Assembly: GCA_964017185.1 (NCBI GenBank)
Contig: OZ024875.1
Span: 65,405,043-65,469,042 of the forward strand
Direction of reading: 5' to 3'
DNA length: 64,000 bases
DNA from: Rugalucina vietnamica
Taxonomy: Eukaryota; Mollusca; Bivalvia; Lucinida; Lucinidae
Made by a program: the position numbers and the translations under genes
Notes under the pieces: generated by a model
What the model saw: the letters and a program-made list of their open reading frames with translations, nothing else
Told to the model about the DNA's origin: nothing
The model's database searches: none
Part shown: one piece after another, positions 6,809-57,105 of the stretch
Numbering within the stretch: position 1 is the stretch's first letter
Layout of the letters: the number at the start of each line of letters is the position of its first letter

Positions 6809-6910
6809 GTACTTGAAGTTAAGCGGCTGTCATGCTCAACTCAGTAGAAGGGCGAGGAGTGCGGCCATTTAATAAAAAAAAAAACAACAAAAAAAAACAA
6901 AACAAAAAAA

Positions 6911-7060
6911 AACTGATATCCTTTAAGAGCAGAGAGCATATCAATGAGAAAAGGGATGGGCCATACCGCGGTTTCGGCTGCTTAAGCCTCTTCAGTGCAT
7001 GTCCTTCAGTGGCACAGCAGATTTGGCAAAATGGAGCATTTGCAAGCAAGATAAGTGAGG
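6911..7060 (-). mobile_element. Retrozyme / PLE-type hammerhead unit, partial
   Basis: Minus-strand fragment of the roughly 377-bp hammerhead unit: the block around GATATCCTTTAAGAGCAG is followed by GAGAAAAGGGATGGGCCATA and a ribozyme remnant at 6958-7001. Unit sequence after the ribozyme (ATTTGGCAAAATGGAG) is present, then homology fades. Confidence 0.7.
6958..7001 (-). ncRNA. Hammerhead ribozyme remnant (type I)
   Basis: Minus strand: CUGAAGA, stem-loop II GGCU-UAAGC-AGCC, GAA, stem III ACCGCGGU, then A. The catalytic core is intact, but stem I (CAUGCA against UGGCCC) keeps only two pairs next to the core, so cleavage is probably lost. Confidence 0.65.
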
Positions 7061-11420: not shown

Positions 11421-11535
11421 AAAAACATGTCCGTGAAATGTATACCCAATTGAACCCCGCTTTTATAAAGAAAAACTGGGGTTTGCATGGGTATTTCTTA
11501 TATTCGCTCTAAAACATAGATTGTGGGAACTCATC
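11421..11535 (+). mobile_element. Family-1 foldback MITE, copy g (3'-truncated)
   Basis: Left TIR AAAAACATGTCCGTGAAATG and the left part of the hairpin core (ACATAGATTGTGGGAACTC) are present. The right half is missing and is followed by a short retrozyme-like block (TTCTTAAAGGATCTCAGTTT). Confidence 0.75.
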
Positions 11536-11830
11536 GGCATGCTTACTGTTCTTAAAGGATCTCAGTTTTATTTTAATTTATTTGAGAGAAAAAAGGATCA
11601 GTGTCTAGCGCCTGTTGTAGACGGAAACAAATAAAGAAACAAACACAGAAAATATGTCAGTCTTGTTGTATTGCAGGAGCATCACAACTTGACGCTGATA
11701 ATTCATTTTGACCCATAAACCATAAAAGTCAAAACTTGAGAGGTTTTACTGATAAAATAGGTACATGACGAGGCATATCTAATAGTTTTATCAACATTTG
11801 AAATTAAATTAATACAACACAAGAAAGTCT

Positions 11831-13967: not shown

Positions 13968-14571
13968 TACATGCTTTTTTTTAACCTAATCACGGTTAAT
14001 TACTTTACTTCTTTCCTTGCTTGAACGCCGGTGAGTCGGGTGTCGGACTATTTGATAGCCCCGACTTATTGGTTGGAACCGGGACTTTTTGTATGTTGCT
14101 TGGTCCACCGGGGCTGAACTGGTGTTTTTCTTTTGCTCCAGATTTTCAATGTTGTTGTTTGGGATCTCCAATCGCCGGGCAACATATTGTATGTGCGAGT
14201 CATCGTTTTGGATTCATCGTGGTGTTTTTGATAGTTTATTTGTTTGTCCATACATGTAATTAATCATTGACTTGATTGGCCATGATGACCGAACAAGTAA
14301 CTAAATGTTATGAACACCTTCAGAATCTGAGGGTAAGGTAGGCAATGCGCCTGTAAAACCGGTTAAAGCCCCCATTAATTTTACATTACAACCAGCCAAT
14401 GCGACACTTCTGTTGTGGTTCTTGTCGTTGAACATTTTGATGTTAAATTAGTGTGATGCTTGCACATCTTATGTACGTTTTCATTTATTAAGTCCGGGTT
14501 AGTGAGTGGCCATCTAATAGGAAATAGCTGCTCTCTCGGTGTAAAATATGTTCCTTTTTTATTGGTACCTG
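13968..14571 (+). mobile_element. PLE 3' region, left part (split by a LINE)
   Basis: Starts at AACCTAATCACGGTTAATTA, the diverged end of the PLE ORF, and continues through CGCCGGTGAGTCGGG, the CACCTTCAGAAT...CTTCTGTTGTGGTTC inverted pair and GAGTGGCCATC to TTATTGGTACCTG. The tail resumes at 17051, so the LINE between is an insertion. Confidence 0.85.
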
Positions 14572-16392
14572 CTTGAACGATGCGCCGGTGGACCCAAATC
14601 TAAGGATTTCTGGCCTACCATCAAGCCCTTCTTATCTAAGAAGGGGAGTGATGGTGGCTCAGAAATCCTGCTCTCTGAAAATGACAAAATTATTTCAGAC
14701 CAGAAACAAGTATGTGAGGTTTTCAACAACTTTTTTGTTAATGTGGCTAAAGATATAGGTAGCTCGACAGGTAACACACATAACCTTTCAACACATCCTA
14801 GTGTTATGAAAATATCTGAAAATATTCCCAAGGACACCCCACATTTTTCCTTCAAGGAGGTTACTACAGAGGATGTCCATAAGATTGTGTCCAAGTTTGA
14901 CATTAAAAAAGCCACTGGTGTAGATGGCATTTCAACTAAACTGTTGAAATTCTGTCTTGACCCTATTTGTAGGCCTCTCAGTAGGCTGATAAACACATCC
15001 CTAACTCAAAGTAAATTTCCACCCAGACTGAAGGCTGCCCAAGTATTGCCCCTTTTTAAGAAAAATGACCCACTAAACAAAGAAAATTTTCGGCCTGTAA
15101 GTATCTTACCGATTATTTCAAAAACTTTTGAAAGAGTAATGCATGACCAACTGTCAGTGCACTTTGAAAACATTTTTGACCCCTACCTTGCAGCCTTCAG
15201 GAAGGGCTTTGGGTGCCAAACTACACTGCTGCGCCTGCTTGAGGATTGGAAGAAGGCCTTGGACAGGCATGAATTTGCTGCTGCAATCCTCATGGATCTG
15301 TCTAAGGCCTTCGACTGTCTACCTCATGATCTTTTGCTCGAAAAGCTTAGGGCTTATGGATTATCTGCCAATGCGGTGGGACTCTTGGAAAGCTATTTGT
15401 CTGACAGAAAGCAGCAGGTTAGAATAGGCTCCCATACAAGTTCCTGGGAAAACATTATGAAAGGTGTCCCTCAAGGTTCTATCTTGGGGCCCCTTTTGTT
15501 TAATGTCTTCCTAAATGACATATTTTATTTTGTCACACAAGCCAACCTCTACAATTATGCTGATGACAATACGTTGTCTTTTATTCATAAAAACCTAGAA
15601 ATTTTGAAAACAGTCTTAGAAGAACAAAGTCAAATTTTAATTGAATGGTTCACAAAGAATTTTATGAAAGCAAATCCCAACACATTTCAAGCTATTTGTG
15701 TTGGTCAAAAAGCTTATGATGGTATCAAATCATTTACTATTGATAATGTAGAGATAAAATGTGAAGATAGTGTCACTCTTCTTGGAGTAAATATAGACTT
15801 CCTTTTAAATTTTAACACTCATGTTTCTGAAATATGTAAGAAAGCCTCAAAGCAGCTTGCAGTGTTAAAAAGACTTGGTAGATTTTTAACTAAAGATGGC
15901 AAAATGACAATTTACAATTCTTTTATTGCCTCAAATTTTAATTATTGCCCTATTGTATGGCACTTTTGCAATGTTGCTAGTACTAAAAAGATGGAGAAGA
16001 TACAAGAACGGGCTCTACGGTTCATCCACAATGATTTTCAGTCATCAACTGATGCACTGCTGGCCATGTCTGGCACTTCTCCCCTTCATATCAAGAGGAT
16101 GAAGATTATGGCGTGTGAGGTGTATAAAATTGTAAATGATCTGTCACCTCAGTATATTAGAGATCTCATTAATATTAAAGTTTCTCAATATAATCTCAGG
16201 AGCGAGCATCAGGCTAGTCTACCAAAGGTAAATTCATCTCGCTATGGGCTGAAGTCATTTCGGTACGAGGCCGCCCGGATATGGAATAGCCTGCCTAATA
16301 ATATTAGGACTGCAGAGTCTTATTGCCAATTCAAAAGGCTAATCCGTACCTGGGACGGCATCAACTGTAAATGCTCTTCATGCTCAGTTTAG
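14572..16392 (+). CDS. Non-LTR retrotransposon reverse transcriptase (CR1/jockey-type LINE), 5'-truncated
   Basis: An open frame of about 606 residues (CTT GAA CGA ... to TAG at 16390-16392) encodes an uninterrupted RT. Counting from the chimeric ATG at 14548, the motifs are KKATGVDGIS (120-129), RPVSILP (182-188), LSKAFD (251-256), GVPQGSILGPLLF (307-319) and the palm motif YADD (337-340), followed by a thumb and a Cys-rich C-terminus (CKCSSCS). RT of this kind makes DNA by target-primed reverse transcription. No apurinic endonuclease domain is present, so the copy is 5'-truncated just before the RT. The ATG at 14548 lies in the PLE tail and the first eight codons are PLE sequence, so the start is artefactual. 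The intact frame suggests recent insertion. Class is judged from motif spacing and the 3' repeat; CR1, L2 or Rex-like cannot be separated here. Confidence 0.9.
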   Translation, partial: LERCAGGPKSKDFWPTIKPFLSKKGSDGGSEILLSENDKIISDQKQVCEVFNNFFVNVAKDIGSSTGNTHNLSTHPSVMKISENIPKDTPHFSFKEVTTEDVHKIVSKFDIKKATGVDGISTKLLKFCLDPICRPLSRLINTSLTQSKFPPRLKAAQVLPLFKKNDPLNKENFRPVSILPIISKTFERVMHDQLSVHFENIFDPYLAAFRKGFGCQTTLLRLLEDWKKALDRHEFAAAILMDLSKAFDCLPHDLLLEKLRAYGLSANAVGLLESYLSDRKQQVRIGSHTSSWENIMKGVPQGSILGPLLFNVFLNDIFYFVTQANLYNYADDNTLSFIHKNLEILKTVLEEQSQILIEWFTKNFMKANPNTFQAICVGQKAYDGIKSFTIDNVEIKCEDSVTLLGVNIDFLLNFNTHVSEICKKASKQLAVLKRLGRFLTKDGKMTIYNSFIASNFNYCPIVWHFCNVASTKKMEKIQERALRFIHNDFQSSTDALLAMSGTSPLHIKRMKIMACEVYKIVNDLSPQYIRDLINIKVSQYNLRSEHQASLPKVNSSRYGLKSFRYEAARIWNSLPNNIRTAESYCQFKRLIRTWDGINCKCSSCSV

Positions 16393-16500
16393 CTGTTGTT
16401 TTGTTTTATTTTTTCTTTATATTTGTTTAATTTAATTTTCAGTTTCCATTAACGTTATACTTTGTGCAAATTTGTTTATTTACCCTCTTTTATAGATGTT

Positions 16501-16541
<41 letters not shown>

Positions 16542-17050
16542 CTAACCACTCATCATGAATAGTGCTACAGTAATACATATATATGCACAGTGAAGAGGTT
16601 GTACCCTTATGAGATGTGATGGAGTTCTAATCATGGGGGATGACCACTTCTGCTCATTTGCATTGTTTTTCTGTGCGTCATGTCTTGTGGTTTAATTTCG
16701 CTTTCGCATTTCTTTCGCCCTTTCGTCACAAGGCTGTCGCATAAGTCCAACGATGCCAGGTTTGAATCCAATGAATTTTTTGCTCTATACAATATCTTGT
16801 ATATGCTTAGCTTTAACATTTGTATGTTTTTGCTTCTGTCTTAAAGTTTTATTCAATATTAGTATGAATTTAACCTATGTGTTTTAATTTTCAGAAATTG
16901 TATATGCTGTATATAACCATTCTGTGATATTTACCATATTTTACTGTTGCTTTACCTTTGTTTGTCGAAATACAAGCCCTACTGGGCTTATGTTATATAG
17001 TTCATAATATTCGACAATAAAGAAATATTCTGTTCTGTTCTGTTCTGTTC
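16393..17050 (+). mobile_element. LINE 3' UTR and (TGTTC)n tail
   Basis: Follows the LINE stop codon. It contains a poly-T run at 16505-16541 and AATAAAGAAAT near 17020, and ends in four TGTTC pentamers. A short tandem repeat at the 3' end is typical of CR1/L2-type LINEs. PLE tail sequence resumes immediately after. Confidence 0.8.
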
Positions 17051-20692: not shown

Positions 20693-21392
20693 GTAGTTTT
20701 TAACCCAATCACGGTTGATAACTATGCTGCCTTCTTTAATTGCACGCCGGTGGGTCGAGCGTCAGACATTATGATGGCCCCGGCATAAAGCTATTCATTT
20801 TAGTTGGTTGGGGCCGGAGCTTCTTGTCTGTTGCTTGGCCCACCGGGGTTCAACTGGTGGTTTTCTTCTCCGGAGTTAGTAAGTTATTGGGCGCCCAGGG
20901 ATCTCCATCGTCGGCAGCTTACTCATTCGGTGAGTCCTCGTTTTCGATTCATCATGGAATTTATGATGGTTCATTGACTAGTTAGAGATTCACTACGAGG
21001 AACGAACAACTAACTAAATGTTATGAACCACTGCAGAAGCTGAGGGTGAGGTTAGGATCCTGTAAAACCGGTTTAAACACGCCAGTAATTTTATATAAGT
21101 GATCGTTCCAAGGCGATACTTCTGTTGTGGTTCTTATTGTTTTATGTCTTGGTGTTTAATTTTTTGTGCTGTTGGCGCCTTGTGTATGTTGTCATATTTT
21201 AGTTTAGTTACGGTAACTGAGTGGCCATCTATTGGGAAATAGCTGCTCATTCGGCTTATTAAATGTATTCATGGTCTTAGTACCTAATTGTTAGTTTGGT
21301 TTTTTTCCCGCCTCGGTTTTTAGAGTGGGAATCTTTTTCTGATTGCGCCTTTTCCTGATCGGTGCCTACTTGTACCTTTTTTTTATCCAGAA
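20693..21392 (+). mobile_element. PLE 3' region, 5'-truncated but with complete tail
   Basis: Begins in the end of the PLE ORF (AACCCAATCACGGTTGATAA) and runs through TGCACGCCGGTGGGTCG, a 109-nt segment bounded by GAACCACTGCAGAAG (21025) and CTTCTGTTGTGGTTC (21133), GAGTGGCCATC and GATTGCGCCTTTTCCTGATC to ACTTGTACCTTTTTT. It is one of the fullest tails and serves here as the reference for the others. Confidence 0.88.
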
Positions 21393-21464: not shown

Positions 21465-21925
21465 CCAAATAGCGCAACCCGAATAGTATTTGAATATTTT
21501 TACTTTACTGCTTCCAAAGGATCCAGCCTTTAAAGGATCTCAGTTTTAATTTTTATTTATAGTTTATTTACTATTACTGCAGCTGGAGTTGTGCCGTGTG
21601 GCGGCTCCAAAAGGTCTCACTGTACATCATCCACAATGCAGATTATATTTTTATTTCGGTCCATTGAGATCAGTAGAGATATTCAGTGTTCAAAATGCTT
21701 ACGTTTAGCAACTTATTCTAAAACTTGTTTTAATTATTTGATCCTGGTTAGGAATCTGTCTTTGATTAAGACTTCTCGTGTTTATTCTTGAAAATGCAGC
21801 ACGATAGTCTGGCTTTCGTTGCCGGTTTAAAAAGTGCTACTGATGAGGGTCCATTACCCGAAGTTGCGCAATATAGTCCATACTATTTGAATATTTTTAC
21901 TGCTTCCAAACGATCATAACTTTAT
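21465..21925 (+). mobile_element. Retrozyme-type unit, about 1.2 copies head to tail
   Basis: The same end sequence (ATTTGAATATTTTTACT...GCTTCCAAA) occurs at about 21490 and 21886, on both sides of a unit body containing AAAGGATCTCAGTTTTAATT, TTGTGCCGTGTGGCGGC and a type-B hammerhead at 21834-21879. The repeated end implies a unit of a little under 400 bp. Confidence 0.7.
21834..21879 (+). ncRNA. Hammerhead ribozyme (type B, partly degenerate)
   Basis: CUGAUGA, stem-loop II GGGU-CCAUU-ACCC, GAA, stem III GUUGCGCAAU, then A. Core position 15.1 is G instead of A, and stem I (GUGCUA/UAGUCC) keeps about four pairs. It is probably weak or inactive but clearly homologous to 56045-56090. Confidence 0.65.
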
Positions 21926-22084
21926 ATTTTATTCTTTCTTTAATCAACTGTTTACACAGGGGATTCAAGTTGATGACAGAAGATTTATAATAGATTAAAT
22001 GAAAATGTACAAGTAGGCAACGATCAAGAAAAGTACAATCTGAAGGATAGACGAAGCTAAATTAAATATGAATTGTTACTTAGT

Positions 22085-23797
22085 GCGAGGTCCGGTTTTT
22101 GGAATGCAAAAGATACAATCTAGTCTTGTCTAAAGGTATAAAGTTTTATTCACAAAATACGAACGATTTACCTCCTAAACCCAAATAGTCCTTTAGGCAT
22201 TTGAAGCAGGATATCCAAGAATTTCATACAAAGTATGTCTTGTTTCCAGCAGACAAGACCGCAAACAATGTTGTTGTTGTTTGTAGGTCACAGAAGAGGC
22301 TTGAGTAGCCGAAACCGCGGTGTGGCCCATCCCCTTTCTCAATATGCCCCTTGCTCTTAAAGGATCTCTGTTTTATTATACTCATTATATCAACATCTTA
22401 AAACAGGAATTTGATCATACCAGGGCTTATCAGGAGACAGATAATGATGAAATGTCTGTAGTTAATGCTCAATTAAACGAATTACTTGTTAAGTTTTCTG
22501 TTTGTATCATTGAAGGCCAAGACAAACTTCCTACGATGTATTAAAAAGACCGTATAAAGCTAGATTTATTGCAAATTCTAGTTCTTGTGCTACCACTGAA
22601 CTTTCTAAATTATTAACTTCCTGTCTTACTGCTATCAAATCTCATGTCATACGATACTGTGAGACAGTGTATGAAACTTCAAATAAAAATTGGTTGTGGT
22701 CAATAAAAATTCTAGCGAGGTGCTCAGTAAACTGAAGTGTAGAGGGTTCCGTGCAGCGAGCTTGTCCACATACGATTTTTTTACTCTGTATACAACATTG
22801 CCACACAATCTGATTAAAGAAAAACTACTCAATTTGAAAGAGTGGACCTTCAAAAGAGCATTGAAAAACTATGTTTAACTTTATTTTGCCTATTATGACA
22901 GTTTTTTCACTTCCTCTGACCAAAGTCGATATACACTTTGATCATGTCAGAATGTATGCGACGCCTTCTCATATCTCCTTGATAATATTTATATTATATT
23001 CGGGACGAAGTTATACAGACAAATTGTTGGAATCCCGATGGGTACAAAATGCGCCCCTCTCGTGGCTGATTTATTTCTATACTGCTACGAAAGAGATTTC
23101 ATGGATTCTCTTATCCATGAAAATCAAGCTTATGTTATCGAGGCTTTAAATTCGACATCTAGGTACCTCGATTACATTTTGAACATTGACAATCCTTGTT
23201 TTGAAGGCATGGTGAATCAAATTTATCCACCTGAACTACAGTTGAATAAAGTCAATATCTCAGATACCGAAGCCCCCTTTTTAGATTTACATCTTTCTAT
23301 TGCAAATGGATTTGTCTTTTCCAAACTTTATGATAAACGCGATGACTTTGAGTTTGATAAAGTAAATTTTCCGTTTTTGTATGGTGACGATCCTCGCCGT
23401 GCTTCGTTTGATGTACACTTTTCGCAACTTATTAGGTTTGCTATAGTCTACACTCATGTAGCGGACTTCAACGTGCGAAATAAATGTTTAACAGCCAAAC
23501 TTCTCCAGAAGGGCTATCGGTATCATAAACTTCGAAAAACATTTTCTAAATTTTATCGCAGACACTATGAATTGATTTCCAAATTTAATGTCGGACTAAA
23601 GATGCTTTTACATGATGGCCTTTCAGAACCAGAACTTTATGGTGACTTGGTTTACAAATTTAAGAAACTTATAGGAAGGAATGATTTTTCGTTTCATTTC
23701 AGAAAAATCATTACACGTTACAGACGTATAGGGTATAACTTTAATGTTGTGCGACAGTCTGCATGCTTAGTTGTTAACCCAATCATAGTCATATCAA
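22085..23797 (+). pseudogene. PLE reverse transcriptase, degenerate copy
   Basis: Pieces of one PLE ORF in several frames. An N-terminal part includes LFPADKTANNVVVVCR at about 22240-22286, resembling the PADKG block near the start of PLE RTs. After a retrozyme insertion (22287-22370) come YYTHYINILKQEFD and VKFSVCIIEGQDKLPTMY; a small deletion removes the WLPKLH codons. RPYKARFIANSS, STYDFFTLYTTLPH and a long C-terminal frame (23038-23805) follow, with GTKCAPLVADLFLY and FLDLHLSI. The palm motif reads YLDY where the copy at 51.6-53 kb has YLDD, so a catalytic Asp is lost. The 3' end diverges at about 23797 and has no tail. Confidence 0.85.
22285..22328 (+). ncRNA. Hammerhead ribozyme remnant inside the PLE ORF
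   Basis: AGGUCA, then CAGAAGA where CUGANGA is expected, GGCU-UGAGU-AGCC, GAA, ACCGCGGU and G at the cleavage position (H expected), then UGGCCC. Two core changes should abolish cleavage. Confidence 0.7.
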
Positions 23798-32685: not shown

Positions 32686-33170
32686 AGTTTCACTTTTGGT
32701 GAAAATTGATAAACTGTAAGTAGCCGATCAGATCGTTTTGCAATTTTGAAAACGAAAAACAATTTAGCTCACTCGCATCATTTAGAACCCGCTCCTCAAA
32801 ATGATCTTAAAGACAGATAAATGCTTTTTGCTGTGACGTTTAATTAATTGCCTATTTGATTAGAGCACATAAAGCTAAAAGAGCCATATAAAAGCACATA
32901 CAGTAGCAATCTCGTCATCATTTCACCATCCTGTCACCTTTGCCTGTAACATTTCATTTACGTCCCTAATAAGTTAATGGAAATTTTATTGAAATGGTGT
33001 CTGCGATTTAATTGACTTGACTTTTAGTCAAAATGGCTTTTCTTCTGCAGTTTAATGCAAAGTACGACGTCGTGAAACAACGAATGGGACAAGTCAAGGA
33101 CACTCGAGCTTATTGAATAAAAATTAAAACTGAGATCCTTTAAGAGCAGTGAACACATTAATGAGAAAGG

Positions 33171-33215
33171 GGATGGGCCATACCGCGGTTTCGACTATTA
33201 AAGTCTCGTCAGCAA
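33171..33215 (-). ncRNA. Hammerhead ribozyme, copy 1 of array (stem I damaged)
   Basis: Core CUGACGA, GACU/AGUC, GAA, ACCGCGGU and A are intact, but a deletion of about 18 bases directly after the core (CAGCAACATGG where other units have CAGTGACCC) replaces the 5' strand of stem I with GUUG, leaving weak pairing. Confidence 0.75.
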
Positions 33216-33525
33216 CATGGACTCAAAGAGAATTACAGACATTTTGCAACTTTCAACAGGGTAGTCGATAATATTATCTAAATGGGACCAAATATGTTAA
33301 ACTGCGGTTAGAAAATGAATCTTAACCGAAAATAAATTTCTGATTTCTCAAAAAATCCGCGCTGATCTCAAAGGACCAAAAAGAAAATATAACCTGCACT
33401 ATGGATGATGTACGGGGAGACGTTTTAGGGCCGCCACACGGCACAACACCAGCTGCAATAATAGCAAATAAAAATTAAAACTGAGATCCTTTAAGAGCAG
33501 TGAACACGTTAATGAGAAAGGGGAT

Positions 33526-33569
33526 GGGCCATACCGCGGTTTCGACTATTAAAGTCTCGTCAGTGACCC
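33526..33569 (-). ncRNA. Hammerhead ribozyme, type I, full canonical core
   Basis: Minus strand: stem I GGGUCA/UGGCCC (six pairs, one G-U), CUGACGA, stem-loop II GACU-UUAAU-AGUC, GAA, stem III ACC-GC-GGU, cleavage nucleotide A. All conserved core positions are present. The very short stem III is the PLE/retrozyme form, usually thought to act as a dimer. Predicted cleavage follows the A before UGGCCC. Confidence 0.9.
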
Positions 33570-33902
33570 TTTAAATTTGGCAACATGGAGTCAAAGAGAA
33601 TTACAGAAATTTTGCAACTTTCAACAGGGTAGTCGATACAAAGACTAATATTATCTAAATGGGACCAAATATGTTAAACTGCGGTTAGAAAATGAATCTT
33701 AACCGAAAATAAATTTCTGATTTCTCAAAATATCCTCGCTGATCTCAAAGGACCAAAAAGAAAATATCAAATGCACTATGGATGATGTACGGGGAGACTT
33801 TTTAGGGCCGCCAGATGGCACAACACCAGCTGCAGTAATAGCAAATAAAAATCAAAACTGAGATCCTTTAAGAGCAATGAACACATTAATGAGAAAGGGG
33901 AT

Positions 33903-33946
33903 GGGCCATACCGCGGCTTCGACTATTAAAGTCTCGTCAGTGACCC
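33903..33946 (-). ncRNA. Hammerhead ribozyme, copy 3 of array
   Basis: Same as the canonical copy, with perfect stem I, except that core position 15.1 is G (GAAGCCGCGGU). This makes a G-U closing pair and probably lowers activity. Confidence 0.82.
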
Positions 33947-34667
33947 TTTAGATTTGGCAACATGGAGTCAAAGAGAATTCCAGAAATTTTGCAACTTTCA
34001 ACAGGGTAGTCGATACAAAGACTAATATTCCAATGGGACCAAATATGTTAAACTGCGGTTAGAAAATGAATCTTAACCGAAAATAAATCTCTGATTTCTC
34101 AAAATATCCTGCTGATCTCAAAGGACCAAAAGGAAAATATAACCTGCACTATGGATGATGTACGGGGAGACGTTTTAGGGCCGCCACACAATTATTTCCC
34201 ATAGAAATAACGAATGAGTGCCAACAAGTAATGTGGTAATATATGGTAGATAAAGGGTGGCGCGTTTGTTTTGATTGTCATCAACGACCATCGAAAAACT
34301 CTTGATGAGTGCTAAAGAATGCACGGCTTTAATCAATTTTGACTTCGCGTGTGCGTATAGTGTTTGATGTGTTCTGTTCATTATTTATTTTGACAATTTT
34401 ATACCTAGTGTAATAGATGTGTAATGGAACCAGCACAGGAAACACGTAGGTTTGTGCATGTACCTTTTTAGAAACATAGATTTTAATACTATTTCTCATT
34501 AGAGTCCAATAAATATGAAAAATGACATAAAACGTTTCAATCATTGCGGTAGGGAGGAAATATCGAAGACGCCATTTCCCCGCGAAGAGATCAGTGACGA
34601 TATCATTTAACTCCTTCTGATGTTTTATCGTGAAGCAATGTTATTTTCTTCCTATGTAACGTCACGT

Positions 34668-34703
<36 letters not shown>

Positions 34704-34706
<3 letters not shown>

Positions 34707-34771
34707 ATCCTTCAAAAGCAGTAAATGTATGAGAAAGGGGATTGGCCATACCGCGGTTTCAGTTCCTTAAA
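34704..34771 (-). mobile_element. Hammerhead unit fragment fused to a PLE tail
   Basis: After a 30-nt poly-A run come GAGATCCTTCAAAAGCAG, GAGAAAGGGGATTGGCCATA and CCGCGGTTTCAG, the 3' half of the ribozyme; CUGANGA and stem II are replaced. The PLE tail (minus strand) starts immediately after at CGATCAGGAAATGGCG. Confidence 0.7.
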
Positions 34772-35575
34772 GTAGGCTACGATCAGGAAATGGCGCAATC
34801 AGAAAAAAAAGATTCCCACTAATAAAACCGAGGTGGGAAAAAACTAAATTAGGTACTTATACCATGAAAACACATCGCAAGCCGAATGAGCAGCTATTTT
34901 CCCAATAGATGACCACTCAAATACCTAAACGTAACTAAGAATATGATAACATACATAAGGCGCCAACAGCATAAAAAATTTCAACACCAAGACAATAAAC
35001 AATAAGAACCACCACATACAAGTATAGCCTTGGGAGGATCAGTAATATAAAATTACTAGCGGGCTTAAAAAGGTACAAGTAGGCAAAGATCAGGTAAAGG
35101 CTCAATTAGAAGAACATACTCACTCCAAAAACCGGAGGTTTAAAAAAACAAACTAACAATCAGGTACTTATACCATGAACACATTTCGTAAGCCGAATGA
35201 TCAGCTATTTTCCCCATAGGTGGCCAATCAGTTACCTTAACTAAACAAAATATGAAAACATACAAAAGGCGCCAACAGCACAAAAATGCTTAACACCAAG
35301 ACATAAAACAAAAAGAACCACCACTGAAGTATCGCCTTTGAACGATCAGTAACACAAAGTTTCTGGCGGACTTAAATCGATTTAACATTGCCATAACCTC
35401 ACCATCAGCTTCTGCAGTGGTTCATAACATTGAGTTAGTTCTTCGGTCCTCGTGGTGAATCTCTAACTAGTCAATGAATCATCAAGAACAAACAAATAAA
35501 TCATGATAAACATCCTGATGAATCAAAAACCAGCACTCACAGATTGAGTTAGTTTTTGAACGTTAAGTTTTTGTC
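34772..35575 (-). mobile_element. Two PLE tails in tandem (minus strand)
   Basis: A first tail (34772-35065) and a second (35069-35575) each begin with the GGTACAAGTAGGCAAAGATC-type end and carry CGCAATTAGA/CGCAATCAG, GTGGGAAAAAAC, GAACCACCAC...GTGGTTC pairs and AATCATCAAGAACAAACAAA. The second reaches ACCAGCACTCACAGATTGAG. Head-to-tail arrangement. Confidence 0.8.
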
Positions 35576-36224
35576 TTTTAACTGATATTTATAACCTTTA
35601 ATACCAATATATATATATTCCATTTAGTCTGTGTTCTCTGCATTGTGCGACTAATGTTGGGTTTAATTTTCGTGACTGTCAATTGGCTGGTTAACTTTTG
35701 TGCTTATTTGAATTTTCACAATGAATCACCCAGTGCTGGTTTCCCAGAATCATGTAATTACGCACTGTTTGCGTATGTGTTTAGTTTTATGAATTAAGTG
35801 TTTATACAAAGAAACACATAGTTATTAAACCTTTTTCGTGCTCATCATGGTAGAACGAGACATTTTGCTGCTTATGAATACTTTCATAAGAGCATTCTAA
35901 TATATCAATTGGTTCAGGTCATTAAACCAGGCCGTTTTTTCCGTGAGCATACACACACGGAATTGGTTGCGGGTTCTACTGGGTTGAGCATGAAAAATAT
36001 CTTGTATTTTAGTTTTGACGTTTATGCCGCGATGTCAAACCTTTAATCTATATTTCCCGTAAAAGATAACGTCAGGACGTTATGAATTTGAATTTTAGTA
36101 ACGCCAAAACAATATTGCGACGTTCCTGCTGAAGAGCTGTAAAGTGAAAGCGCTACAGGACTGAAATAAATTGTTGCTGTTACTTCATTTCATTCTTTCT
36201 TCCTATCATTACCGACACAATGAC

Positions 36225-36304: not shown

Positions 36305-36414
36305 AACAAACAGAATTAGCGTACAAAAGTCGGTCGTGCCGCGACCGGGAATCGAACCACGGACCTCCTGCATTCCGGGCAGACGTGCTAACCATTACAC
36401 CACCGCGGTCTTCC
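36304..36414 (-). mobile_element. tRNA-derived SINE / tRNA-like sequence
   Basis: On the minus strand GACCGCGGTGGTGTAATGGT is a box A region and GGTTCGATTCC a box B; the acceptor arm pairs at five of seven positions. The anticodon loop would be CCGGAAT (GGA), but U33 is absent and there is no long variable arm, so a working tRNA-Ser is unlikely. A 37-bp end of the element recurs at 36669-36706. Confidence 0.65.
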
Positions 36415-42606: not shown

Positions 42607-42905
42607 TGAAAATAAAAATTAACTGAGATCCTCTAAGAGCAGTGAGCACATTAATGAGAAAGGGGATGTGCCATACCGCGGTTTCGACTACTGAAGTCCC
42701 GTCAGTGACCCATTAGATTTGGCAACATGCAGCCAAAGAGAATTACTGAAATTTTGCAATTTTCAACAGGGTAGTCGATACAAAGACTAGTTTTATCTAA
42801 TGGGACAAAATCTATTAAACATTGGTTAGAAAATGAACCTTAACCGTTAATAGATCTCTGAGTTCTCAGAATATCTACGTTGATCTCAAAGGACCAAAAC
42901 GAAAC
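42607..42905 (-). mobile_element. Hammerhead unit (retrozyme-like), single, in lectin intron 1
   Basis: GAGATCCTCTAAGAGCAGTG, a ribozyme at 42668-42711, CAAAGAGAATTACTGAAATT, TTCAACAGGGTAGTCGATAC and CTCAAAGGACCAAAACG appear in the same order as in the 33-kb array. One incomplete unit, about 170 bp from lectin exon 2. Confidence 0.82.
42668..42711 (-). ncRNA. Hammerhead ribozyme, mutated core
   Basis: Minus strand GGGUCA, CUGACGG (the final A of CUGANGA is G), GACU-UCAGU-AGUC, GAA, ACCGCGGU, A, UGGCAC. One stem I mismatch plus the A9 change; likely inactive. Confidence 0.78.
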
Positions 42906-50229: not shown

Positions 50230-50969
50230 AAAACTTAACTCGACATTCTTTTAATGTTAATTAAGTGGGTGGGGTAAGATCTTCCTGTCATTGATTATCT
50301 TAGACATTAAAAATTATTTATGAGTATTTTAACATTTTGCTAATGATTTACAAGATAAAAATAACCAAACAAATGATGTTTGATATATTGTATGAAGTTA
50401 CCAGCAATGCAGTCTATTGTTCATTGCTATTTAAGATGTGACCATGTATGTTTGTTCTAAGTGTTACCATGGTTACCATTGTTTTAGTGGTGAACAATTA
50501 ATTGGTGTTGCACTAAGTATACAAAATGTCTCTTGACTATAGCATTTTATCACATTCTACATGTAATCATTTCTGTTTCAGGTTGAACATGTATCAGTTT
50601 CCATGTTAATTTAAGTGGATGGAGTACTTCTACATTGTCATTAAACACTTTAAATGCAAATAATCATTGCTTTATAAGTATTTTAGATGCTATATATCAT
50701 TATATAACTGTTTAAAAGTCTCATTCAGTGTTCAGTCAAAATATTTGGATAGCCTCATTCTTTTATATTGATTTTATAAAAACACAATTTTATGGGTTCT
50801 CGTCCTAGTAGGTGGTTTTAGATGTCTCTGAATTTTTTGTTTATGAAGTGCCCACTAAGACTTTACATAAACTGGGCATGCTGACAATGATCTTTTATGA
50901 CAACAATGTGAGGCCTCTTAAATTTACCTCAATTCTTTTCTTCATGTTCTCAAAATATGCTGAAGAAGG
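50230..50969 (-). repeat. Long dispersed repeat, left part, holding a PLE
   Basis: Reverse complement of 43345-43800 plus 44434-44560 with no insertion at 50369, so it is the empty-site allele for the 43801-44433 PLE. Its continuation is at 53006, beyond a PLE. Confidence 0.75.
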
Positions 50970-51583
50970 TACAAGTAGGCAAAGATCAGGAAAAGGCGCA
51001 ATCAGAAAAAGATTCCCACTCCAAAAACCGAGGTGGGAAAAAACCAAACTAACAATCAGGTACTTATACCATGAAACATATCGTAAGCCGAATGAGCAGC
51101 TATTTTCCCAATAGGTGGCCACTCAGTTACCTTAACTTAACTAAAAATATGAAAACATACATAAGGCGCCAACAGCACAAAAAATTTTAAACACCAAGAC
51201 ATAAAACAAAAAGAACCACTACAGAAGTATCGACTTGGAACGATCAGTAACACAAAGTTACTGGCGGGCTTAAACCGGTTTTACAGGTACCTAACCTCAC
51301 CCTCAGCTTCTGCAGTGGTTCACAACATTTAGTTAGTTCTTCGGTCCTCGTGGTGAATCTCTAACTAGTCAATGAATCATCAAGAACAAACAAAAAAATC
51401 ATGATAAACATCCTGATGAATCAAAAACCAGGACTCACAGATTGAGTAAGCTGCCCGACGATGGAGATCCCTGGGCGCCGAATAACCTACTAACTCCGGA
51501 GCAAAAGAAAAACACCAGTTGGACCCCGGTGGGCCAAGCAACAGACAAGAAGCTCCGGCCCCAACCAACTAAAATGAATAGCT
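50970..51583 (-). mobile_element. PLE 3' tail of the 51.6-53.0 kb copy
   Basis: Reading on the minus strand from the ORF: TTGGTCCCC-type GGGTCCAACTGGTG block, CAGCTTACTCAATCTGTGAG, GAACCACTGCAGAAGCTGAG ... CTTCTGTAGTGGTTC, GTAACTGAGTGGCCACC, CTGATTGCGCCTTTTCCTGA and CTACTTGTACCTT at 50970. Complete 3' end attached to an RT. Confidence 0.9.
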
Positions 51584-53005
51584 TTAAGTCGGGGCCATCA
51601 TAGAGTCTGACGCCCGACCCACCGGCGTGCAAATAAAGAAGGCAGCATAGTTATCAACCATGATTGGGTTAAAAACTAAGCATGCAGACTGTCGCATAAC
51701 ATTCAAGTTATAACCTATACGTCTGTAACGTGATATGATTTTTTCCGAACTGAAGAGAAAAATCATTTATTCCTTTAAGTTTCTTTAATTTGTAAACCAA
51801 GTCACCATAAAATTCAGGTTCCGAAAGGCCCTCACTTAAAAGTGTCTTTAACCCAACATTATATTTGGAAATCAATTCATAGTGTCTACGATAAAATTTA
51901 GAAAAGGTTTTTCGAAGTTTATGATACCGATAGCCCTGTTGGAGAAGTTTTGCCGTTAAACATTTATTTCGAGCGTTGAAGTCTGTAACATGATTGCAGA
52001 CTCTAGCAAACCTAATAAGTTGCGAAATGTATACACCATAAGAAGCACGACGAGGAACGTCACCATCCAAAAAAGGAAAATTTACTATATCAAAATCAAA
52101 GTCATCGCGCTTATCATAAATTTTAGAAGAAACAAATCCATTTGCAACAGAAAGATGTAGATCTAAAAAGGGGGCTTCGGTATCTGAGATATTAGCTTTG
52201 TTCAACTGAAGTTCAGGTGGATAAATTTGATTGACCATACCTTCAAAATAAGGATTGTCAATGTTCAAAAGGTCATCGAGGTACCTAGATGTGGAATTAA
52301 AAGCCTCGATAACATCAGCTTGATTATCATGGTTAAGAGAATCCATGAAATCTCTTTCGTAGCAGTATAAAAATAAATCAGCTACGAGAGGTGCGCAATT
52401 TGTACCCATCGGAATTCCAACAATTTGTCTGTATAACTTGGTCCCAAATCTAATATAAATATTATCAAGGAGATAGGATAAGGCGTCGCACACATTCTGA
52501 CATGACCAAAGGGTATACCGACTTTGGTCAGAGGAAGTGAAAAAAGCCTTTCTGTCATTACATGCCAAATAAAGTGAACCATAGTTTTTTAATGCCCTTT
52601 TGAAGGTCCACTCTATCAAATCCAGAAGTTTTTCTTTAATTAGATTATGTGGTAATGTTGTATACAGAGTAGAAAAATCATATGTGGACAAGCTTGTCGC
52701 ACGGAACCCTCTACACTTCAATTTACTGAGCACCTCACCAGAATTTTTTATTGACCAAAACCAATTTTTATTTGAAGTTTCATACACTGTCTCACAGTAT
52801 CTTATAACATGAGATTTGATAGCAGTAAGACAAGAAGTTAATAATTTAGAAAGTTCAGTGGTAGTACAAGAGCTAGAATTTGCAATAAATCTAGCTTTGT
52901 ATGGTCTTTTGTGAAGCTTAGGTAACCAATACATCGTAGGAAGTTTGTCTTGGCCTTCATTGACACAAACAGAAAACTTAACAGGTAAATCGTTTAAGTG
53001 GGAAT
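51584..53005 (-). pseudogene. Penelope-like reverse transcriptase (best copy in window; one frameshift)
   Basis: The frame from about 53003 encodes HLNDLPVKFSVCVNEGQDKL, then a 408-residue stretch to 51708. Residues counted from the MYWLPKLHK motif: TYDFSTLYTTLPH (84-96, catalytic Asp 86), GIPMGTNCAPLVADLFLY (173-190), YLDD (218-221), FLDLHLSV (about 255) and LYDKRDDFDF after it. The layout (LPKLHK at the start, GIPMGT, YLDD, FLDLHL, then an SQLIRFARVC and KLLQQGYR region) is that of Penelope-like elements. One extra A near 51745 shifts the frame; the last codons continue in 51584-51766 (MRQSACLVFNPIM ... MMAPT, stop). No GIY-YIG endonuclease follows the RT, so the element is either endonuclease-free or carries it N-terminally, upstream of the 5' truncation at about 53005. 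Confidence 0.9.
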
Positions 53006-53110
53006 GACGTTTTTGATAAAATTAAAAAATTGGAAATTTGAAACCCCACCCACCTTATGACTACCATAGCTAGAAGACAGTTCATTATACTAAGATGCTA
53101 AGTTACAGTA
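53006..53110 (-). repeat. Long dispersed repeat, right part
   Basis: Reverse complement of 43255-43345 (TTTTATCAAAA, AACCCCACCCA, TAGAAGACAGTTCATTATAC). Together with 50230-50969 it is one repeat split by the PLE. Confidence 0.75.
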
Positions 53111-54451: not shown

Positions 54452-55689
54452 AGGTACAAGTAGGCAAAGATCAGGAAAAGGCGCAATCAGAAAAAGATTC
54501 CCACTCCAAAAACCGAGGTGGGAAAAAACCAAACTAACAATCAGGTACTTATACCATGAAACATATCGTAAGCCGAATGAGCAGCTATTTTCCCAATAGG
54601 TGGCCACTCAGTTACCTTAACTTAACTAAAAATATGAAAACATACATAAGGCGCCAACAGCACAAAAAATTGTTTATACACCAAGACATAAAACAAAAAG
54701 AACCACCACAGAAGTATCGACTTGGAACGATCAGTAACACAAAGTTACTGGCGGGCTTAAACCGATTTTACATGGCCATAACCTCACCCTCAGCTTCCGC
54801 AGTGGTTCAGTGATATACAAGAAATAAGAAAAATCATATCAAGAAAATACTAAACATAGATACCAACGTTTAACATGAATAACGGAAAGCAGAGTGAGCA
54901 GCTATTGAAGGTATTAGGTGGTCACAGTGCTAGCTTGGACAGAACAAGTAAAATGCAGAGGGCTAAGTGAACAGCCAAATTATAATCGGGTGGCCACAAA
55001 GCCATGCAACATGAAACTCGTAATCGGAATAACTGATATCGTTAACTGATAAGTGTGAACCACTACAGTAGTACCGCCTTGGAACGGTCAGTTATAAATA
55101 ACTGGGGGGCTTAAACCGGTTTTACATGGCCATAACCTCACCCTCAGCTTCTGCGGTGGTTCATAACATTTAGTTAGCTATTCGGTCCTCGTGGTGAATC
55201 TCTAACTAGTTCATTAATCATCAAGAACAAACAAATAAATCATGATAAACATCCTGATGAATCAAAAACCAGGACTCACAGACTGAGTAAGCTGCCCGAC
55301 GATGGAGATCCCTGGGCGCCGAATAACCTACTAACTCCGGAGCAAAAGAAAAACACCAGTTGGACCCCGGTGGGCCAAGCAACAGACAAGAAGCTCCGGC
55401 CCCAACCAACTAAAATGAATAGCTTTATGTCGGGGCCATCATAGAGTCTGACGCCCGACCCACCGGCGTGCAATTAAAGAAGGCAGCATAGCTATCAACC
55501 ATGATTGGGTTAAAAACTAAGCATGCAGACTGTCGCATAACATTCAAGTTATAACCTATACGTCTGTAACGTGTTATGATTTTTCTGAACTGAAAAGAAA
55601 AATCATTAATTCCTTTAAGTTTCTTAAATTTGTAAACCAAGTCACCATAAAATTCAGGTTCCGAAAGGCCCTCACTTAAAAGCGTCTTT
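54452..55689 (-). mobile_element. PLE: end of RT plus composite 3' tail
   Basis: Minus strand from LLSEGLSEPEFYGDLVYKFK (55689 downward), through the ORF end MMAPT-stop at 55425, the TCGGGCGTC...CCGGAGCTTC block, GAACCACCGCAGAAG, the alternative segment (54880-55000, GTTCTGTCCAAGCTAGCACT on this strand), then GAACCACTGCGGAAG...CTTCTGTGGTGGTTC and the terminus CTACTTGTACCTTTC. The RT is cut at 55690 by a tandem retrozyme. Confidence 0.88.
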
Positions 55690-56044
55690 ACCCGAAATTG
55701 TACAATATGGCCCACCTTTTCACTTTTAATGCTTTTACTGATTTCAAAGGATCTAACAATTATATTTTATTTGCTATTACTGCAGCTGGTGTTGTGCCGT
55801 GTGGCGGCCCTAAAAAGTCTCCCCGTACATCATCCATAGTGCAGATTATATTTTTCTTTTGATCCTTTGGGATCAGTGAGAATATTTGGAGCATTTAAAA
55901 TTTATTGTACGCTAAGAATCATCTTCTTAGCAGTATTTTGATTATTTGCCCCTTTGGGAATAAGAGTCTTTGATTTAGACTACACTGGTGTAAATTCTTG
56001 AAATTGCAGAATTAATGTCTGGCTTTCGCAGCCGGTTTTGTAAA

Positions 56045-56090
56045 GGGTCACTGATGAAGGTTCATTACCCGAAATTGTACAATATGGCCC
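56045..56090 (+). ncRNA. Hammerhead ribozyme, type B, first tandem unit
   Basis: Stem I GGGUCA/UGGCCC, CUGAUGA, stem II A-GGU-UCAUU-ACC-C (outer A/C mismatch), GAA, stem III AUUGUACAAU (fully self-complementary, inviting dimer pairing), then the cleavage nucleotide A. All core bases are conserved. Confidence 0.87.
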
Positions 56091-56422
56091 ACCTTTTCAC
56101 TTTTAATGCTTTTACTGATTTCAAAGGATCTAACAATTATATTTTATTTGCTATTACTGCAGCTGGTGTTGTGCCGTGTGGCGGCCCTAAAAAGTCTCCC
56201 CGTACATCATCCATAGTGCAGATTATATTTTTCTTTTGATCCTTTGGGATCAGTGAGAATATTTGGAGCATTTAAAATTTATTGTACGCTAAGAATCATC
56301 TTCTTAGCAGTATTTTGATTATTTGGCCCCTTTGGGAATAAGAGTCTTTGATTTAGACTACACTGGTGTAAATTCTTGAAATTGCAGAATTAATGTCTGG
56401 CTTTCGCAGCCGGTTTTGTAAA

Positions 56423-56468
56423 GGGTCACTGATGAAGGTTCATTACCCGAAATTGTACAATATGGCCC
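56423..56468 (+). ncRNA. Hammerhead ribozyme, type B, second tandem unit
   Basis: Same sequence as 56045-56090. Cleavage at both sites would release a linear RNA of 378 nt from this array. Confidence 0.87.
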
Positions 56469-56565
56469 ACCTTTTCACTTTTAATGCTTTTACTGATTTC
56501 AAAGGATCTAACAATTATATTTTAATCAACCCAACATTATATTTGGAAAAATATAATGTGGGTGG

Positions 56566-56768
56566 GGTCATGGTAATGTTAAATCGATTAAAGTCCGCCA
56601 GTAATTTGATATAACTGATCGATCCAGGACGATACTTCTTTTGTGATTATTATTGTTTTATGTCTTGGTGATGATTTTTGTGCTGTTTGCTTTTGCGCCC
56701 TGTGTGCGTCTTCATATTTGTGTAAGGTTTGGTACATTTCCTAATCTTTGCCTTCTTGTAACCTTTTA
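56566..56768 (+). mobile_element. PLE tail fragment (+)
   Basis: GTAATGTTAAATCGATTAAA, CTTCTTTTGTGATTATTATTG, TTTGCGCCCTGTGTGCG and TTTGCCTTCTTGTAACCTTT. Diverged; directly followed by a hammerhead unit. Confidence 0.7.
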
Positions 56769-57105
56769 CATCATCCATAGTGCAAATTATATTTTCCGTT
56801 TGGTCCTTTGAGATCAGCGTGGATATTCTGAGAAATTAGAAAAATTTTTATCGGGTTAGATTCATTTTTTAACCAACGTTTAATATATATGGCCCAACTA
56901 TATATTTGGATTACACTAGTCTTTGTATCGACTACCCTGTTGAAAGATGCATAATTACAATAATTCTCTTTGGCTCCATGATGCCAAATCTAGAGGGTCA
57001 CTGAAGAGGCTTAAGAAGCCGAAACCGCGATATGGCCCATCGCCTTTCTCAATTATACGTTCACAGCTCTTAGACTGTTAGAGGATATCAGTTTTATTTT
57101 TATTT
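56769..57105 (+). mobile_element. Hammerhead unit (type A) after a PLE tail
   Basis: CATCATCCATAGTGCAAATT, TTTGGTCCTTTGAGATCAGC, TTGTATCGACTACCCTGTTG, ribozyme 56995-57038, then CAGCTCTTAGACTGTTAGAG and TTTTATTTTTATTTATTTG. One unit on the plus strand. Confidence 0.82.
56995..57038 (+). ncRNA. Hammerhead ribozyme, type A, near-intact
   Basis: GGGUCA, CUGAAGA, GGCU-UAAGA-AGCC, GAA, stem III ACCGCGAU, A, UGGCCC. Stems I and II pair perfectly. One mismatch (C-A) in stem III is the only defect. Confidence 0.85.

What the first reader, a model, noticed from the sequence alone, without database searches (positions are those of the whole stretch)
33115..34187. Three-unit tandem array with type I hammerhead ribozymes (retrozyme-like)
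Seen: three head-to-tail units of about 377 bp (first shortened to 351) on the minus strand, each with a hammerhead; the middle one (33526-33569) has every conserved core base, a six-pair stem I (GGGUCA/UGGCCC), a four-pair stem II and the minimal stem III typical of PLE ribozymes. Known: metazoan retrozymes are small tandem elements whose RNA is cut by such hammerheads and accumulates as circles; they are thought to be mobilised by PLE reverse transcriptases. Inferred: this locus may produce unit-length circular RNA.
Basis: partly seen in the sequence, partly recalled or inferred. Interest (0 to 1): 0.85.

Follow-up and report, generated by a model that had tools for sequence, protein, structure and literature searches.

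The report
Self-cutting ribozyme mobile element, clam genome
This is a small, protein-free mobile element, probably in a clam-like mollusc, whose RNA carries a hammerhead self-cutting ribozyme; its genomic copies look as if small RNA circles were copied into DNA for one or more laps from a fixed starting point, which bears on the open question of how such elements jump.

Summary
33116-34189 (minus strand) is a head-to-tail array of 351, 377 and 346 bp units. Units 2 and 3 carry complete type I hammerheads; unit 1's has lost one arm of stem I. Rfam's models miss it, but a strict descriptor, a 12-pair structure with four compensated positions, and genome relatives support the ribozyme (71 of 89 hammerheads in 40 loci intact by set criteria). 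It is a metazoan non-LTR retrozyme, like the 350-390 bp mussel retrozymes already in print, one of at least two 377-bp subfamilies in this 1.09-Gb genome. The useful part is how copies are built. 55 of 62 sampled A loci, and 40 of 41 B groups, end at one fixed 3' position; A's lies about 65 nt past the ribozyme cut. 5' ends vary, units within a locus are usually near-siblings (median 1.9% versus 5.6% between loci), and lengths cluster just over whole laps (14 of 37). No target-site duplication exceeds chance. This fits multi-lap reverse transcription of an RNA circle from an internal start. A few joints to Penelope-like (PLE) sequences suggest, but do not prove, a PLE enzyme. Self-cleavage and circular RNA are untested here.

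The parts
33116..34189 (-). Retrozyme A array, three head-to-tail units (2.84 laps of 377), 5' end at 34189, 3' terminus at 33116
33116..33466 (-). unit 1 (351 bp; 26 nt missing in two places)
33467..33843 (-). unit 2 (377 bp)
33844..34189 (-). unit 3 (346 bp, 5'-truncated)
33526..33569 (-). type I hammerhead of unit 2, complete; cut between + coordinates 33532 and 33531
33903..33946 (-). type I hammerhead of unit 3, complete (G-U in stem III); cut between 33909 and 33908
33175..33218 (-). hammerhead of unit 1, core kept but 5' strand of stem I deleted
33532..33908 (-). predicted 377-nt monomer between the two complete cut sites
   Evidence: inference
42610..42904 (-). retrozyme A copy, 5'-truncated, same 3' terminus; hammerhead with a core change (CTGACGG)
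56767..57105 (+). retrozyme A copy, 5' end abutting a PLE 3' terminus (the PLE end read by eye)
6900..6997 (-). retrozyme A copy truncated within the hammerhead
22286..22377 (+). retrozyme A copy truncated at the hammerhead, with PLE reading-frame sequence on both sides (flanks translated by eye and compared with P0001)
34688..34772 (-). retrozyme A fragment joined to a PLE 3' end that lacks its last 12 nt (34770-35069 -)
55690..56527 (+). retrozyme B array, 2.2 units; its two full units show 0 substitutions in 377 aligned sites and one gap column
21476..21934 (+). more diverged retrozyme B copy, about 1.2 units
50961..53021 (-). PLE-like element: reverse transcriptase frame and 3' end (the candidate helper family)

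Best explanation
The array is a copy of a non-autonomous metazoan retrozyme. Inferred cycle: a host transcript through an older array is cut by the type I hammerheads (alone or as stem-III-paired dimers), the 377-nt monomers are closed into circles by a host ligase, and a reverse transcriptase starts at one fixed internal place on the circle, about 65 nt downstream of the cut junction, at an AT-rich target. It copies one or several laps until it stops, leaving arrays with a constant 3' end, a variable 5' end and no detectable target-site duplication. A PLE-type reverse transcriptase is the likeliest enzyme. Shown: sequence and structure of the ribozyme, fixed 3' ends, lap structure, sibling units, lack of detectable duplications, a few PLE joints. 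Inferred: transcription, cleavage, circularity, enzyme identity.
For: Fixed 3' terminus: 55 of 62 sampled subfamily A loci (57 of 65 before dropping three poor alignments), and 40 of 41 strand-separated B groups, the latter at a resolution of about 25 nt because they were read from a match table. Multi-lap arrays up to 5.8 units (A); one B group spans 13.8 units, with a stretch of about 360 nt inside it that has no listed match. Units within a locus differ by a median of 1.86% (66 pairs), between loci 5.57% (2936 pairs). Lap fraction 0.11 or less in 14 of 37 loci with the standard end; binomial p 2e-5, and 22 of 20000 under an exponential-length null. Hammerhead intact by set criteria (core, cut bases, at least 5 of 6 stem I and 3 of 4 stem II pairs, two stem III pairs) in 71 of 89 regions of 40 loci, stem III an exact palindrome in 74 of 89; 162 of 20000 random 11-column sets were at least as conserved as the core. 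The modelled double hammerhead is the cofold minimum at -35.1 kcal/mol. 5' ends are not enriched at the cut: 2 of 65 within 3 nt. PLE 3' terminus abutting a retrozyme 5' end on the same strand at L024 and L033, 0.18 expected, and at 34770 and 56766 in the window. L033 has PLE on both sides of nearly two laps (749 nt, from q299 round to q295). Reverse transcription from an internal site, with preference for ATT, is in print for another PLE (PMC11167929).
Against: No RNA data. Rfam hammerhead models do not score it. In the pair counts, the number of pairs with changes on both sides was reached by 54 of 500 shuffles and the number of pair types by 399 of 500, although paired cells and covariation score were reached by none. 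In isolation the monomer hammerhead fold (-8.6) is weaker than an alternative fold (-12.5). Some loci have diverged units: L046 3.2-10.1%, L043 6.5%, L033 5.7%, L019 5.3%, and in L046 two units are closer to each other than to the rest. Within loci of 1.5 laps or more alone, the lap-fraction excess is weak (5 of 21, p 0.07). 5' ends also pile up at q190-227 (11 of 65), so sequence-specific stops occur. Seven of 62 loci have other 3' ends. PLE joints are few (2 of 65 in the independent sample). The PLE in the window shows no shared 3' tail with the retrozyme, and its family, if Naiad as recalled, is said to lack hammerheads. PMC11167929 found hammerhead cutting not needed for PLE insertion in vitro.
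Confidence: 0.75

Rival explanations
1. Linear multimer model: a reverse transcriptase copies uncut read-through transcripts of existing arrays; the hammerhead is a passenger and no circle is involved.
For: PLE hammerhead cutting is not required for insertion in vitro (PMC11167929). 5' ends do not mark the cut (2 of 65). Sequence-specific stops near q190-227 exist. A few loci have units 5-10% apart (L046, L043, L033, L019).
Against: Units within most multi-unit loci are near-identical, also in loci of 3-6 units (L031 and L044 0-0.3%, L029 0.5-1.9%, L042 1.6-3.5%), whereas a multimeric transcript of an aged array would pass on its unit differences. Lengths just over whole laps are in excess. 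The ribozyme core is more conserved than most column sets.
Confidence: 0.17
2. Same circle model, but the enzyme is a LINE (for example CR1-like) rather than a PLE; retrozyme-PLE joints are nested insertions at AT-rich PLE ends.
For: A LINE-type reverse transcriptase frame lies at 14545-16392 (RVT_1, E 7.7e-28). Some retrozymes lie inside PLE copies (22286-22377; L069). CR1-like LINEs often lack target-site duplications (recalled).
Against: No similarity of the retrozyme tail to 16392-16900 downstream of that frame above shuffled tails (nor to the PLE 3' end). PLE termini lie at the 5' joint, same strand, in 2 loci of 65 where 0.18 were expected. L033 is PLE on both sides.
Confidence: 0.2
3. 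DNA-level spread: satellite amplification, reintegrated DNA circles, or a Helitron-like rolling-circle transposon.
For: Tandem arrays, one fixed end, no target-site duplication detected.
Against: Dispersed insertions on many contigs with one fixed end and a variable other end. DNA-circle reintegration would give random ends on both sides. The termini lack the Helitron TC start and CTRR-hairpin end (sequence; Helitron rules recalled). A conserved ribozyme core points to an RNA stage.
Confidence: 0.03

Closest known systems
Metazoan non-LTR retrozymes, especially those of the mussel Mytilus galloprovincialis (PMC7229834)
   Same: Type I hammerhead, repeat units of about 350-390 bp, low GC, no protein coding, two similar ribozyme families, co-existing PLEs; mussel ribozymes also lack most loop-loop contact bases.
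   Different: Sequence could not be compared (accessions not held here). Circular RNA and cleavage are shown there, not here. The fixed internal 3' terminus, the lap statistics and the PLE joints are not described in the parts of that paper that I read (4 of 6, no supplement).
Penelope-like elements with hammerheads in pseudo-LTRs (PMC11167929; Cervera and de la Pena 2014, not held)
   Same: Type I hammerhead followed at some distance by an internal reverse-transcription start: about 85-92 nt past the cut in the anole PLE by my reading of its numbers, about 65 nt here; AT-rich ATT at the joint; tandem copies.
   Different: No protein coded; stem III is a palindromic two-pair stem with tetraloop; unit 377 bp instead of kilobases.
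Salamander and newt hammerhead satellite retrozymes (PMC7229834)
   Same: Short stem III (a palindromic tetraloop in HHR_Amex1; two pairs and a tetraloop in HHR_Amex2), dimer cleavage; 330-350 bp units.
   Different: Retrozymes of another host group, not compared in sequence; HHR_Amex1 keeps all conserved loop 1-loop 2 contacts, which I did not recognise here.
Schistosoma W-elements with hammerheads (PMC8490949, passages only)
   Same: Tandem satellite-like units, four families with hammerhead sequences.
   Different: Described as satellite DNA; linkage to the W chromosome is recalled; how they spread is left open there.

Membership tests
metazoan non-LTR retrozyme | type I hammerhead with conserved core | tested here: met
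   sequence and structure level only:
metazoan non-LTR retrozyme | short tandem repeats (150-450 bp), from dimers to multimers, dispersed | tested here: met
metazoan non-LTR retrozyme | GC below about 45-50%, no protein-coding region | tested here: met
   GC 0.36-0.39; longest ATG frame 36 aa in A and 74 aa in B
metazoan non-LTR retrozyme | loop 1-loop 2 tertiary contacts (canonical ribozymes; mostly absent in mussel) | tested here: inconclusive
   no recognisable contact bases read by eye; no tool here tests tertiary contacts
metazoan non-LTR retrozyme | target-site duplications, when present, longer than 4 bp | tested here: inconclusive
   shared words of 6 or more at 3 of 57 loci; permuted mean 3.1
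metazoan non-LTR retrozyme | self-cleavage and abundant circular RNA | not testable with these tools
   no RNA data
Rfam hammerhead families | score above gathering threshold | tested here: not met
   RF00163 hit none of the 14 control genomes either
Penelope-like element | codes telomerase-like reverse transcriptase | tested here: not met
   no ATG frame over 74 aa in the units; it may be used by a PLE but is not one
Helitron | 5' TC and 3' hairpin-CTRR termini (rule recalled) | tested here: not met
   fixed terminus reads AATTTTTATT; read by eye

The most novel reading that the evidence does not exclude
Genomic copies of this retrozyme record rolling-circle reverse transcription in animals: a PLE reverse transcriptase starts at a fixed site on a ribozyme-made RNA circle, tends to stop just after whole laps, integrates without target-site duplication, and sometimes jumps between PLE RNA and the circle in one event (L033: PLE, nearly two whole laps, PLE).
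Probability: 0.45. Interest if true: 0.7.

Novelty: new member of a known kind. Interest (0 to 1): 0.5.

Why it matters
A 2020 review (PMC7761336, section 7) says metazoan retrozymes show no conserved motif that would reveal which autonomous element moves them. Here the copies share one terminus, give a predicted reverse-transcription start, show lap-by-lap growth and a few PLE joints. That turns a proposed life cycle into tests that can be run on existing genomes and with one purified enzyme. I saw no description of these marks in the papers opened; the searches for them were in the held open-access library, most listed papers were not opened, and no supplement was read.

Tried and rejected
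Rfam scans for hammerheads gave nothing; the motif was tested by descriptor, covariation and relatives instead. Relatives in prokaryote genome contigs and viral contigs: no match to the core pattern; a 19-mer pattern gave two and one matches, no more than chance in collections of that size by my estimate, and they were not followed. First idea that 22286-22377 was an end-joined PLE chimera: rejected, since PLE frame lies on both sides. First test of PLE joints by blast ends counted only one of the two window joints (34770; 452 of 20000 shifted placements did as well), because the PLE end at 56766 follows an internal deletion; that end was read by eye. A fuzzy-match version of the test missed most known PLE ends, gave zero joints, and is discarded as faulty. 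The window joints formed the hypothesis, so only the 2 of 65 count as a test. That every locus crosses the cut (62 of 62) is largely forced by the queries and is not used as evidence; two tail-only scraps in the window (11530-11574, 21524-21556) do not cross it. A search for target-site duplications was negative. No shared tail between the retrozyme and the PLE or LINE regions tested. For the PLE proteins, Pfam gave nothing above cut-off (one weak sub-threshold match on P0001) and the PDB nothing (P0014); the PLE label rests on recalled motifs. One search found 4641 relatives among 7993 scored, 120 listed, two with names; a few listed ones carry precomputed Pfam PF26215, whose meaning I did not look up. 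One search failed on a script error and was rerun.

Sampling limits: one search scored 40 of 4717 first-look candidates for A; the window array and 39 fetched regions cover these 40. One search scored 40 of 1485 for B, read from the match table only. One search scored 40 of 171, of which 30 were cut out. From these 30, four duplicates (L051, L053, L076, L077) and one bad alignment (L067) were dropped, leaving 65 loci in all, and three more poor alignments (L060, L071, L079), leaving 62. The first sample favours loci with at least one full unit. Because B ends were read from single-unit matches, stubs under about 25 nt beyond a unit go unseen.

Full report
What is there. The window (36% GC) lies in a 1.09-Gb genome of 47 contigs. 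33116-34189, read on the minus strand, is a tandem array with period 377. Its three units measure 351, 377 and 346 bp and differ from each other by 3.4-4.6% in substitutions, about equally in all three pairs, while they differ by 12-18% from two other copies in the window. That is the pattern of units born together. Unit 1 lacks 26 aligned nt, including the 5' strand of stem I.

The ribozyme. The hammerheads of units 2 and 3 are complete. Across ten copies in the window (nine distinct), 89.8% of cells pair in a 12-pair structure, four pairs show changes on both sides, and sliding the partner by 1 to 3 columns drops pairing to 12-51%. None of 500 shuffles reached the paired fraction or covariation score, but 54 of 500 reached the number of compensated pairs and 399 of 500 the number of pair types. 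A model built from these copies finds them again, by construction, and one further weak place, 34743-34779 at E 1.7. In the 40 loci of the first genome sample, this array included, 71 of 89 complete hammerhead regions keep core, cut-site bases, at least 5 of 6 stem I pairs, at least 3 of 4 stem II pairs and two stem III pairs, and 74 of 89 keep stem III as an exact palindrome. Stem III differs in sequence between subfamilies A (ACCGCGGU), B (AUUGUACAAU) and a diverged B copy, yet remains palindromic or nearly so. A palindromic short stem III fits action as a dimer, as reported for amphibian retrozymes (PMC7229834) and, by citation in PMC7761336, for PLE hammerheads. In folding calculations the double hammerhead is the minimum-energy dimer, whereas the single hammerhead is not the minimum alone. 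Rfam models do not detect it.

Two subfamilies. Subfamily B at 55690-56527 and 21476-21934 is about 27-41% different from the A array over the aligned part but has nearly the same unit length. Its two full neighbouring units in the window show no substitution over 377 aligned sites, with one gap column.

How copies end. I aligned A loci to a repeated unit so that ends were free. Of 62 loci, 55 end at the same 3' position, just after ...AATTTTTATT; 57 of 65 do before three poor alignments are dropped. Of 41 strand-separated B groups, 40 end at one place, read from the match table at about 25-nt resolution. The fixed A end lies about 65 nt past the ribozyme cut. 5' ends vary, with clusters at q341-377 (17 of 65) and q190-227 (11 of 65) and no peak at the cut (2 of 65 within 3 nt). 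Total lengths run from under half a lap to 5.8 laps in A; one B group spans 13.8 units, with about 360 nt inside it lacking a listed match. In the first sample, 14 of 37 loci with the standard end are 0.01-0.11 lap longer than a whole number of laps (p 2e-5; 22 of 20000 under an exponential null); for loci of 1.5 laps or more alone it is 5 of 21 (p 0.07). Units inside a locus differ by a median of 1.86%, between loci 5.57%; four loci are exceptions with 5-10% (L046, L043, L033, L019). Target-site duplications do not exceed permuted pairs (3 of 57 against 3.1).

Reading. A fixed start with variable stop is the mark of target-primed reverse transcription; multi-lap sibling units and stops just past whole laps point to a circular template. 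A linear monomer cut by the ribozyme cannot serve, because arrays of more than one lap run through the cut site. A linear multimer remains possible, at lower probability. Published work shows that a PLE enzyme starts inside its RNA at AT-rich, ATT-type sites and that the hammerhead lies upstream of that start; the same work found hammerhead cutting not needed for insertion in vitro (PMC11167929; parts 1-2 of 4 read).

The helper. The window is crowded with a PLE-like element: one 2.06-kb query matches 33 pieces, itself included. Four retrozyme copies begin exactly or almost exactly at its 3' terminus on the same strand: 34770 (PLE lacking its last 12 nt) and 56766 (read by eye) in the window, L024 and L033 elsewhere. 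In the set of 65 loci, 2 were seen and 0.18 expected from the density of PLE ends further out, p about 0.014 by my Poisson estimate. L033 has PLE sequence on both sides of nearly two laps (749 nt) beginning and ending at almost the same place in the hammerhead, as if the enzyme had jumped onto a circle and off again. Others look like nested insertions (22286-22377; L069). The helper thus stays probable, not shown.

Host. The PLE protein has close relatives in many ENA records and, at 80-83% identity, in two proteins labelled Candidatus Thiodiazotropha, symbionts of lucinid clams (recalled), which probably carry host DNA. A bivalve host is likely; the species is unknown to me.

Literature seen: PMC7229834, parts 1-4 of 6; PMC11167929, parts 1-2 of 4; PMC7761336, passages and section 7; PMC8490949, passages. 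Cervera and de la Pena 2014 and Lunse et al. 2017 (not held) were seen only as citations; Craig et al. 2021 on Naiad PLEs is recalled.

Verdict. A real, well-preserved member of a known kind, with genomic marks that make its proposed life cycle testable.

Noticed in passing
20763-20830 (+), 51542-51609 (-), 55383-55450 (-): Rfam SECIS_1 above gathering score at the very end of three copies of the PLE reading frame (overlapping ...SDSMMAPT-stop in two of them). Recalled: Naiad PLEs of clams encode selenoproteins. In-frame UGA codons upstream were not mapped.
   Followed up: partly
36124-36160 (+): A further strict-descriptor hammerhead-like hit (5-pair stem I, palindromic AGCGCU stem III), not related to the retrozymes by blast, upstream of a TA tract and a tRNA match at 36337-36409 (-); 1 descriptor hit in 300 simulated windows. 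A genome search for it did not complete.
   Followed up: partly
whole window, e.g. 35067-35552/34770-35069 and 62817-63266/62508-62812: PLE fragments joined end to end, a 3' terminus followed directly by a 5'-truncated copy; 22 PLE 3' ends in 64 kb.
   Followed up: partly
56528-56560: A foldback of about 14 bp, read by eye, between retrozyme B and a PLE fragment, perhaps from a template switch.
   Followed up: no
14545-16392 (+): LINE-type reverse transcriptase frame (RVT_1) without internal stops, 615 aa.
   Followed up: no
G000:C12:32544433-32549640: B array spanning about 13.8 units, with about 360 nt inside it lacking a listed match.
   Followed up: no
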